The translations under genes were made by a program, and so were the position numbers. The notes beneath the pieces are model-generated. The model made no database searches. It was not told where the DNA came from and saw only the letters and a program-made list of their open reading frames with translations. From an uncultured Clostridia bacterium (lineage in GTDB: Bacteria; Bacillota; Clostridia; Oscillospirales; Ruminococcaceae), in NCBI GenBank assembly GCA_947629335.1, contig CANRDI010000006.1:34105-98104 (forward strand): a DNA stretch of 64,000 nucleotides, read 5' to 3'. Shown here in pieces: positions 61,451 through 64,000 of this stretch; position 1 is the stretch's first letter, and the number at the start of each line of letters is the position of its first letter.

Positions 61451-61982
61451 CTAATACGAAAGCCTTTTTTCGAGAACTTGTTCAAGTTTTTTGAAATCAC
61501 AGCAGCGATGGGTGAGTCTTTTACTTTTTTCGGGAGTTTCTGTAATCATTTTATATAATTTGTTTGCTTTTCGTGTAATGATTTCTATATTGTCATTGCA
61601 CCAGTACAATTGATTGTTGAGTAAGTTTTTACGGAGCATTTCAGCTTTATTTTCATTTTTGTTTGGATTTACGTAAATTTGTTCAATTACACTTTTGTGT
61701 ACTGGTATCATATTATTAAAATTGAGTGCGCCAATCAAGTTACCATTTTTATCAACAATTTTAGAAAAATCAACATCATTTTTCATATATTTATGCTTTT
61801 ATTTTTGTCGATGTAGGCGGTATGCAGTATTCCTTATTATTAGTCATAACAATAATACCTACAAAAGGTCTGGTTTCTTTATGCTCTTGAGGTGAAACAG
61901 ACATAACCTTATCATCGACTTTAGCCAAATCTCTTATTTATTTAATATCAACTGTATAAAACTTTAGACCACTTTTTTGCAT
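61451..61982 (-). pseudogene. type III TA toxin ToxN/AbiQ family, inactivated
   Basis: MQKSGLKFYTVDIK*IRDLAKVDDKVMSVSPQEHKETRPFVGIIVMTNNKEYCIPPTSTKIK[frameshift]HKYMKNDVDFSKIVDKNGNLIGALNFNNMIPV...KRLTHRCCDFKKLEQVLEKRL. Confidence 0.75.
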
Positions 61983-62040: not shown

Positions 62041-62116
62041 AAAACTCCCACTCACAGTAGGGTCCACTGCTTTTAACAAAAACGAAAACCGTTTCCATAC
62101 ACGAGCATTTCTGCTC
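62041..62116 (-). ncRNA. degenerate type III antitoxin RNA (one repeat)
   Basis: Promoter TTGACA-N17-TATACT (62151-62123), GAGCAGAAATGCTC leader hairpin, one repeat AAAGCAGTGGACCCTACTGTGAGTGGGAGTTTTAA. Confidence 0.6.
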
Positions 62117-62188
62117 ACTCATAGTATAGCATAATCTAAAGGTTTTGTCAAGTGTTTTCCATAAATTTCTCAAAATTGAAAAGAAAAT

Positions 62189-62224
62189 GTGCTATATGTA
62201 GCACAATCAGTGTTTCGGCTTGTT
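62189..62224. repeat. direct repeat copy A
   Basis: gtgctatatgtagcacaatcagtgtttcggcttgt; same sequence near 63635-63669. Confidence 0.9.
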
Positions 62225-63313
62225 TGGTTTATGGTTCTGCGTCTGGTCTATGCCGTTTTTGCGAGCTTCGTTTATTTTCCGAGCGCGTTCTTTAAGATCT
62301 TCAAGACCTTGAGAAAATGATTTGGAAGAAGATGTTTCGGTATGTATCTGACTTGATTTTATATTTGCAACTGTATTTTTAACAAGTTCATTTTGCGTTA
62401 CATCAAATATTGACTTATTTTCAACCTTAGGCTTGAGCTCGGCATTTTCCTTTTCATTTACAATAATTGTTTTATTATTAGGGAGTTGTTTGTCGTAACT
62501 AACAAGAGCCTTGTAAAATTTTTTGTGTATTTTAGAATTGTATAAATGGTCTTTTATTCTTCCAAAAAAGTCCGAAACAGCTTGTCCAAACGTATAATGG
62601 GGTTTAGTTAGAACATCAACAAATTCATTTTGTCTATTTAATGATTTAAATCTGATAATTTTTATATTGCCTACATTTACCTCCGGTGGATCATATTTTG
62701 GGTGTTTATACAATATTTGTTGTTGCTCCCTCTCTTTGCTCAATGGTGTTATGGCTGCATATAATAGGGTATTGGGTGTATGACCTTTTGCAAAATCGTT
62801 TTCTATTTCCAAATTTCTTGAAAAAATAGATAACCCAAAATATTTATTATCAGCATTTCTATGTTTTTTCAGGACAAAATATATTGTTTTATTATCAGGT
62901 GCTTGTATTTTTAAAAGATAATCTCCCTTAATTTTTGAAAAGGGATTTGCGTTATTATTATATTTGAAAATGTTAATATTAGATTTTTTCAAAAAATCAT
63001 TTAACAAGCTACTTAGATTTGCAACTGCACTTATTCTATCTGCAATACCGTGTAGTTTATAATTTTCGCTTGTTTCTATATCTTTTTGAGTAATCTCTCC
63101 GTTTAACACACTATTTAGTGCTTTGGAGGAATTGGAAAGCTCATTTATCTTTGAAACATCTCTAAGATATTGAAATCCACATAAATGAAAAAAGTTATCT
63201 TCAAAAAAACGTAAGTTAATACTGCTACTTTTATTTTTATAGCCCAAAACAATGGTATATTCATAATTCTTAAGTTTTTGAAACTGTAAAGCCGCATCGT
63301 ATAATGTATCCAT
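62207..63313 (-). CDS. PBECR4-like (Barnase/EndoU/ColicinE5-D/RelE-type nuclease superfamily) domain protein
   Basis: INLRFFEDNFFHLCGFQYLRDVSKI...ENYKLHGIADRISAVANLSSLL...IKGDYLLKIQAPDNKTIYFVLKKH...NKYFGLSIFSR. Confidence 0.6.
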   Translation of the reverse strand: MDTLYDAALQFQKLKNYEYTIVLGYKNKSSSINLRFFEDNFFHLCGFQYLRDVSKINELSNSSKALNSVLNGEITQKDIETSENYKLHGIADRISAVANLSSLLNDFLKKSNINIFKYNNNANPFSKIKGDYLLKIQAPDNKTIYFVLKKHRNADNKYFGLSIFSRNLEIENDFAKGHTPNTLLYAAITPLSKEREQQQILYKHPKYDPPEVNVGNIKIIRFKSLNRQNEFVDVLTKPHYTFGQAVSDFFGRIKDHLYNSKIHKKFYKALVSYDKQLPNNKTIIVNEKENAELKPKVENKSIFDVTQNELVKNTVANIKSSQIHTETSSSKSFSQGLEDLKERARKINEARKNGIDQTQNHKPNKPKH

Positions 63314-63329
63314 CAAATTACCTCACAAT

Positions 63330-63360
63330 AAAAAAGCTCTGTATTAAACAGAGCTTTTTT
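63330..63360 (-). terminator. Rho-independent terminator (symmetrical)
   Basis: aaaaaagctctgtattaaacagagctttttt. Confidence 0.85.
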
Positions 63361-63550
63361 GCATATTTTCTTTTTCGATATAAAATCTAGCCAATTTGTG
63401 GTTTGATATGCAAACCCCCCTGGGAGCTCCACGGATCACCGCATATTGGCGCGACCACCCGCTTCATCACTCAGCGCAACACTCCCGCTTTCGCTTCGTT
63501 GTCCGCTCGACAGCTCCTGCCGTCTGTCAAACAGTATTATCACTGTTTCT
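63330..63550 (-). ncRNA. candidate structured RNA upstream of PBECR4-like gene
   Basis: Strong promoter at 63585-63557; hairpins AAACAGT/ACTGTTT and GGTTTG/CAAACC; ends in terminator 63330-63360. Confidence 0.55.
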
Positions 63551-63585: not shown

Positions 63586-63634
63586 CACTTTTTTGAAAAA
63601 TATTTAAAATATTTCAAGATTGAAAAGAAAAATG

Positions 63635-63669
63635 GTGCTATATGTAGCACAATCAGTGTTTCGGCTTGT
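63635..63669. repeat. direct repeat copy B
   Basis: gtgctatatgtagcacaatcagtgtttcggcttgt. Confidence 0.9.
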
Positions 63670-63686: not shown

Positions 63687-63712
63687 AAAGGCTACGGAAA
63701 CCCGTAGCCTTT
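63687..63712 (-). terminator. terminator after antitoxin-like repeat array
   Basis: aaaggctacggaaacccgtagccttt. Confidence 0.8.
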
Positions 63713-63718
63713 AGAATA

Positions 63719-63858
63719 ACTTCCACTTACGGTAGGACTCACCGCTCTTATGACTTCCACTCACAGTAGGACTCACTGCTCTTATGACTTCCACTTACGG
63801 TAGGACTCACCGCTCTTTACAGAAACGGAAACCGTTTCCATACGCGAGCATTTCTGCT
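63719..63858 (-). ncRNA. type III antitoxin-like RNA with three 34-nt tandem repeats, no adjacent toxin
   Basis: Units at 63719-63752, 63753-63786, 63787-63820; same leader hairpin as the 62.1 kb copy. Confidence 0.65.
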
Positions 63859-63865
63859 CACTTAA

Positions 63866-63894
63866 AGTATAGCATATTCTAAAAAAATTGTCAA
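63866..63894 (-). promoter_or_regulatory. promoter of repeat RNA
   Basis: Reverse strand TTGACA-N17-TATACT. Confidence 0.75.
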
Positions 63895-64000
63895 GAGATT
63901 TCCATAAATTATTTTCAAGTCTGATGTTCATTTGTCAATGATATGTTACACTATTCTCAAAAAAATTATAATGTTAATAACTAAGATTGAAATCAGCCGA

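What the first reader, a model, noticed from the sequence alone, without database searches (positions are those of the whole stretch)
63687..63894. Orphan type III antitoxin-like RNA: three 34-nt repeats, own promoter and terminator, no toxin
On the reverse strand the order is TTGACA-N17-TATACT, leader hairpin GAGCAGAAATGCTC, three units (GAGCGGTGAGTCCTACCGTAAGTGGAAGTCATAA-like, unit 2 carrying compensating-looking substitutions), GC-rich terminator, RBS aggagg, then only KPKH*-stop. This is the toxI-terminator-toxN layout with the toxin coding region missing. The retained array could protect against an incoming ToxN (anti-addiction) or be a relic.
Basis: partly seen in the sequence, partly recalled or inferred. 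Interest (0 to 1): 0.8.

Follow-up and report, generated by a model that had tools for sequence, protein, structure and literature searches.

The report
Toxin-less ToxI antitoxin RNA array
A gut bacterium still carries the complete RNA antidote gene of a bacterial toxin whose own gene has been deleted, and dozens of related gut bacteria do the same, some lining up five or six different antidotes in a row, which suggests they keep them as protection against incoming DNA that carries the toxins.

Summary
Window 63894-63687(-) holds a promoter, leader hairpin, three 34-nt units, a terminator and an RBS, followed only by K-P-K-H-stop. It is a ToxI-type array. A public MAG contig (L105, CANQOJ010000205.1) has the identical three units and terminator (137 nt identical) in front of an intact ToxN, so the toxin was deleted here. 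The units form a covarying pseudoknot. The broken ToxN at 61.5-62.0 kb is the partner of the second, one-unit array, not of this one.

It is not a lone accident. Among 110 loci in public genomes that carry such arrays, 66 arrays precede an intact ToxN, 15 a remnant and 34 nothing. Toxin-less arrays keep promoter, terminator and pseudoknot. Several sit in tandem "banks" of 3-6 RNA antitoxins with few or no intact toxins.

Next to the array lies drum RNA (function unknown), followed by a PBECR4 nuclease-like gene. Drum precedes PBECR4 genes repeatedly (12 of 20 in a class-wide sample), so drum is a candidate RNA antitoxin. PBECR4-associated RNAs also stand alone in banks.

Best reading: retained antitoxin RNAs that neutralise incoming ToxN. 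The recent-relic alternative is not excluded; nothing was tested by experiment.

The parts
63866..63894 (-). sigma-70-type promoter of array 1 (TTGACA-N17-TATACT)
   Evidence: 11/12 matches; hexamers kept in twin L105 with 8 of 17 spacer bases changed
63846..63859 (-). leader hairpin 1 (GAGCAGAAATGCTC)
   Evidence: position conserved in 8 arrays, stem varies in a paired way
63818..63842 (-). leader hairpin 2 (TATGGAAACGG..CCGTTTCTGTA)
   Evidence: both-sided changes at four of its pairs across 8 arrays
63784..63817 (-). ToxI-type unit 1
   Evidence: identical in L105
63750..63783 (-). ToxI-type unit 2, compensatory change in stem 1
   Evidence: identical in L105
63716..63749 (-). ToxI-type unit 3
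   Evidence: identical in L105
63687..63712 (-). intrinsic terminator of array 1
   Evidence: identical in L105
63673..63678 (-). left-over ribosome-binding site AGGAGG of the deleted toxN
   Evidence: the same RBS precedes toxN in L105
63653..63667 (-). left-over toxin tail K-P-K-H-stop
   Evidence: tail shared with the PBECR4 ORF end (D4)
63625..63669 (-). module-boundary repeat (tail + palindrome GTGCTACATATAGCAC), copy 1
   Evidence: D4, 91% to copy 2; similar in L105 and several times in L178
63557..63585 (-). promoter of drum RNA (TTGACA-N17-TATAAT)
   Evidence: 12/12
63356..63472 (-). drum RNA (RF02958)
   Evidence: 73.4 bits, gathering 43
62207..63316 (-). PBECR4 nuclease-like ORF (about 368 aa), candidate toxin paired with drum
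   Evidence: PF18813, 77.6 bits, residues 5-180; confident model over the domain
62179..62223 (-). module-boundary repeat, copy 2
   Evidence: D4
62123..62151 (-). promoter of array 2
   Evidence: 11/12
62041..62074 (-). array 2, single ToxI-type unit (CCC/GGG pseudoknot type)
61451..61981 (-). toxN pseudogene (internal stops and a frame change), partner of array 2
   Evidence: PF13958 in two pieces with TAA stops

Best explanation
Array 1 is the antitoxin RNA gene of a ToxIN-family (type III) toxin-antitoxin locus whose toxN was deleted from just after the RBS to the last four codons. (Shown: layout, exact twin with intact toxN, pseudoknot covariation.) The promoter, leader, three units and terminator are intact, so the RNA is probably still made. 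(Inferred.) If a mobile element brings a ToxN of the L105 type, that ToxN should cut the pre-existing precursor into 34-nt pseudoknots and be captured by them, so the cell is neither poisoned when it loses the element nor shut down by its abortive-infection response. (Inferred from known ToxIN chemistry.) Gut Clostridia repeatedly keep such toxin-less RNA antitoxins and collect several of different specificity in tandem. The window locus is one such cluster: toxin-less toxI, drum-PBECR4, and toxI with a dead toxN.
For: Twin L105: 137 nt identical across units and terminator, followed by an intact ToxN that matches solved ToxN chains. Upstream the -35/-10 spacer differs at 8 of 17 sites, ribosomal-region DNA of the two genomes is only 81-85% identical, and the toxN pseudogene is 67% identical at third codon positions to its intact relative, so the array is unusually conserved. 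No intact ToxN in the window's genome, rated 100% complete. Recurrence: 34 toxin-less arrays against 66 with intact ToxN and 15 with remnants in 110 loci; 29 of 35 toxin-less arrays (window included) have a promoter of at least 10/12 and 31 of 35 a terminator. Toxin-less units not fixed by the search pattern keep the pseudoknot pair in 43 of 43 cases. Banks: L102 (5 arrays), CANQZR010000009.1 = L087/L152 (6 RNA antitoxin genes, toxins gone or stubs, no ToxN in the genome), L108, G226. 11 of 23 genomes with toxin-less arrays have no ToxN at all.
Against: No expression or neutralisation data. A recent deletion would leave the same intact array without any selection. Most records are MAGs, so absence of toxins elsewhere is not certain and binning may err. 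The search pattern selects intact arrays. Few toxin-less arrays lie in recognisable mobile elements within the 8 kb seen, and no viral contig matched, so what they protect against is not shown.
Confidence: 0.62

Rival explanations
1. Recent relic: the toxin was deleted by chance or because it was costly, and the RNA has simply not had time to decay. It has no present function.
For: The RBS and the KPKH tail are still legible; the twin array is identical, as expected for a young deletion. Toxin remnants behind 15 arrays show that toxin loss is common and stepwise.
Against: Toxin-less arrays are about half as frequent as complete loci and keep the pseudoknot in unconstrained units. Banks keep up to six RNAs with promoters while all toxins are gone. 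Array 2 beside a dead toxin has shrunk to one unit whereas array 1 has not.
Confidence: 0.25
2. Spare antitoxin dose: the stand-alone array raises the ToxI level for a resident ToxN, tuning a local system rather than protecting against incoming ones.
For: In Ruminococcus callidus (L070), L108, L141 and L178 a stand-alone array lies next to an intact toxIN.
Against: In those loci the stand-alone units are of a different type from the neighbour's; the window's genome has no intact ToxN; 11 of 23 such genomes have none.
Confidence: 0.08
3. The array became a regulatory or decoy RNA with another partner (host RNA or another nuclease).
For: Leader hairpins are conserved beyond the units.
Against: The same leader precedes arrays with intact ToxN; no recurring non-ToxN gene was noticed behind the toxin-less arrays (not tested systematically).
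Confidence: 0.05

Closest known systems
ToxIN family of type III toxin-antitoxin systems (toxIN Pa, toxIN Bt, AbiQ)
   Same: 34-36 nt tandem units, pseudoknot, own promoter, Rho-independent terminator, RBS position; the twin locus carries a ToxN related to solved ToxN structures.
   Different: No toxin gene; array stands alone or in banks; two conserved leader hairpins; no Rfam antitoxin family matches.
pseudo-ToxI of phage TE (PMC3475682)
   Same: ToxI-like repeats without a toxin that neutralise ToxN when expanded.
   Different: Phage-borne, 1.5 imperfect repeats before expansion; here complete arrays in bacterial genomes, several specificities side by side; no viral contig matched.
RNA anti-CRISPRs (Racr, PMC10651486)
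   Same: Solitary copies of a system's own RNA repeats used against that system.
   Different: CRISPR repeats on viruses and plasmids; here antitoxin arrays on bacterial contigs, function untested.
AbiF with its RNA antitoxin RCd22 (PMC12373285)
   Same: A structured RNA motif upstream of a toxic RNase gene that acts as RNA antitoxin, the precedent for drum-PBECR4.
   Different: HEPN toxin and abiF motif; drum and PBECR4 belong to other families and are untested.
Anti-addiction antitoxins of type II systems
   Same: Proposed role of a toxin-less antitoxin against incoming toxin-antitoxin elements (recalled from general knowledge; reviews exist in the library, not read).
   Different: Protein antitoxins; here RNA.

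Membership tests
ToxI antitoxin RNAs (ToxIN family) | Tandem units of about 34-36 nt | tested here: met
   Three 34-nt units
ToxI antitoxin RNAs (ToxIN family) | H-type pseudoknot per unit | tested here: met
   Stem and pseudoknot covary, (structure itself inferred)
ToxI antitoxin RNAs (ToxIN family) | Same units found in front of an intact ToxN | tested here: met
   L105
ToxI antitoxin RNAs (ToxIN family) | Own promoter and Rho-independent terminator | tested here: met
   (consensus matches only)
ToxI antitoxin RNAs (ToxIN family) | Match to a described antitoxin family in Rfam | tested here: not met
   No such match up to E=10; not a defining feature of function, since known ToxI sequences diverge strongly
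ToxI antitoxin RNAs (ToxIN family) | Neutralises ToxN | not testable with these tools
   Needs co-expression
Complete type III toxin-antitoxin system | Toxin gene directly downstream of the terminator | tested here: not met
   Only RBS and KPKH* remain
Type III-like RNA-toxin pair (drum-PBECR4) | RNA gene, terminator, then toxin-like gene, recurring in distant genomes | tested here: met
Type III-like RNA-toxin pair (drum-PBECR4) | PBECR4 is toxic and the RNA binds and silences it | not testable with these tools
   No solved relative found by fold

The most novel reading that the evidence does not exclude
Gut Clostridia and neighbours keep banks of stand-alone RNA antitoxins against two unrelated families of toxins (ToxN and PBECR4), assembled by repeated capture of RNA-toxin modules and loss of the toxin, as RNA-based immunity to mobile elements; and drum RNA, of unknown function since its description, is the antitoxin of PBECR4 nucleases.
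Probability: 0.5. Interest if true: 0.9.

Novelty: new variant of a known kind. Interest (0 to 1): 0.8.

Why it matters
Type III antitoxins are described as the first half of a toxin operon. Here nearly a third of the arrays of this type stand without a toxin, and some genomes line up five or six. That turns a proposed anti-addiction role into something directly testable with natural pairs (window array against L105 ToxN). The neighbouring drum-PBECR4 pair gives a testable function to an RNA family known only from comparative genomics, and the banks point to further RNA-toxin families: RNAs that sit in banks are candidates for antitoxins.

Tried and rejected
Rfam search for ToxI/CptI/TenpI-type antitoxins in the region: none up to E=10. 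Phage and plasmid collections: no similar DNA. Viral contigs: no match to the two-unit pattern or the leader pattern, so a phage-borne mimic is not supported. The broken ToxN at 61.5-62.0 kb as partner of array 1: rejected. First pseudoknot register was off by one, corrected. Pfam on short drum-downstream peptides gave only weak PBECR4 hits, better with a home-made profile (which includes one of them). Fold search of the PBECR4 model: no significant match. Weinberg 2017 paper on drum not held.

Full report
1. What is in the sequence. On the minus strand at 63894-63653 the order is promoter, leader hairpin 1, leader hairpin 2, three 34-nt units, terminator, RBS, K-P-K-H-stop. Downstream follow a perfect promoter and drum RNA (RF02958, 73.4 bits), a PBECR4-domain ORF (PF18813), then a second array reduced to one unit and a toxN pseudogene (PF13958 in two pieces with stops). 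The window's right end is the end of contig C6 and lies in a short element present at other contig ends of this genome. No intact ToxN exists elsewhere in the genome.

2. It is a ToxI-type array. An alignment of eight arrays from the same bacterial family shows two covarying leader hairpins. Nineteen units fit one pseudoknot: stem C(A/G)GT-AC(T/C)G and loop-to-tail pairing TCC-GGA or CCC-GGG, with both-sided changes at both helices. The covariation score is above all 500 shuffles and far above all slid controls.

3. The twin with a toxin. A scan of one genome per species (85,488 species) for a two-unit pattern gave 110 stretches; about one match would be expected by chance. L105 carries the same three units. 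From the first unit through the terminator 137 nt are identical, and the next gene is an intact ToxN of 178 aa related to solved ToxN structures. Upstream, 8 of 17 spacer bases differ. The two genomes are about 81-85% identical in a ribosomal-gene region. Array 1 is therefore toxI without its toxN. The deletion runs from just after the RBS into the last codons. The toxN pseudogene further down is related to another toxin (78% to the ToxN behind the matching array in L181, 59% to L105's).

4. Toxin-less arrays are common. In the 110 stretches I classified arrays by tblastn and a ToxN profile: 66 before an intact ToxN, 15 before a remnant, 34 with nothing recognisable although at least 650 nt were available, 9 at contig edges, 1 with ToxN 700 nt on. 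Toxin-less arrays have promoters and terminators as often as complete ones (29/35 and 31/35, window included, against 46/63 and 57/66). Their pseudoknot pairs are kept: CCC-GGG 53, TCC-GGA 26, TCC-GGG 1. Among units not fixed by the search pattern, all 43 pair. Half of them (17 of 35, window included) hold at least one unit identical to a unit in front of an intact ToxN elsewhere. Of 23 genomes with such arrays 11 show no ToxN at all. Caveat: most are MAGs, though Ruminococcus callidus ATCC 27760 (L163/L070) is an isolate.

5. Banks. L102 has five arrays of different types in about 1.4 kb, each with its own promoter and terminator, next to a zeta-toxin gene and a phage-integrase-family gene. 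On CANQZR010000009.1 (end of L087, start of L152) six RNA genes follow each other: a toxI with a 37-aa ToxN stub, a second type with another ToxN stub, a PBECR4-associated RNA, a five-unit toxI, a two-unit toxI, and a CptI-like array. A nucleotidyltransferase gene comes next. That genome has no ToxN. L108 has a complete toxIN followed by three stand-alone RNAs, one of them PBECR4-associated. G226 has three arrays between a tRNA gene and a HipA-like gene and no ToxN. L178 has two toxin-less arrays before a complete locus. The window is a cluster of the same sort.

6. drum and PBECR4. In the family sample 22 drum RNAs were found. At least six are followed within about 100 nt by a PBECR4-like gene, with two weaker cases. 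In a class-wide sample, 12 of 20 PBECR4 loci scanned have drum directly upstream (10 above gathering, two at E about 0.01). Most of the remaining ones are preceded by a promoter, another structured-looking RNA and a terminator. The commonest is a repeat-bearing RNA starting GGCTGACAC and ending TTGGCGGACAAC..CAGTCA, which Rfam does not match at E 0.1. This is the type III layout with unrelated parts. AbiF with its RNA antitoxin is a tested precedent (PMC12373285). Stand-alone drum and GGCTGACAC RNAs occur in banks too: G144 C12 has both with no toxin, and G144 C31 has a toxin-less toxI array directly followed by a toxin-less drum. Toxicity of PBECR4 is inferred from its family name and position only; its model resembles no solved structure significantly.

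7. Mechanism and confidence. Shown: deletion of the toxin, intact RNA gene, conserved pseudoknot, recurrence, banks. Inferred: transcription, processing by an incoming ToxN, neutralisation, benefit. That ToxI-like repeats in trans can defeat ToxN is known from phage TE (PMC3475682), and Racr RNAs use the same logic against CRISPR-Cas (PMC10651486). I put about 0.9 on "toxI whose toxin was deleted" and about 0.6 on "kept because it protects".

8. Novelty. The review of type III systems (PMC5086642) describes them by antitoxin-terminator-toxin order and does not use the word orphan or solitary. Searches of the open literature found no description of toxin-less toxI banks or of PBECR4. These searches cover open-licence papers only.

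Noticed in passing
window 63472-62207: drum RNA (function unknown) directly upstream of a PBECR4 nuclease-like gene; the same order recurs in many genomes (12 of 20 PBECR4 loci class-wide), so drum is a candidate RNA antitoxin.
   Followed up: yes
L218 1265-1401, L222 1247-1390, L108 5498-5633, L152 7-142, L209 2196-2332: A structured-looking RNA family (GGCTGACAC ... TTGGCGGACAAC ... CAGTCA, often two repeats), matched by no Rfam family at E 0.1, precedes other PBECR4 genes and also stands alone in banks.
   Followed up: partly
window 63625-63669 and 62179-62223; L105; L178: A 45-nt module-boundary repeat (toxin tail KPKH* plus palindrome GTGCTACATATAGCAC) ends each module, and the ToxN pseudogene and the PBECR4 ORF share a C-terminal tail; suggests modules are shuffled by recombination there.
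   Followed up: partly
window 63924-64000: The window ends in a multi-copy intergenic element found at the ends of several other contigs of this genome, which probably broke the assembly.
   Followed up: partly
L152 1084-1413, L108 6740-7072: A small nucleotidyltransferase-domain gene sits beside two RNA-antitoxin banks; possibly a toxin-less protein antitoxin of the MntA kind.
   Followed up: partly
L102 2416-3414, L181 2983-3960: Zeta-toxin-family genes lie directly upstream of array clusters in two genomes, as in a toxin-antitoxin island.
   Followed up: partly
L209 1940-2140: A third RNA gene with promoter and terminator lies between the GGCTGACAC RNA and drum; a similar piece lies between two drums in G112 contig 7.
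   Followed up: no
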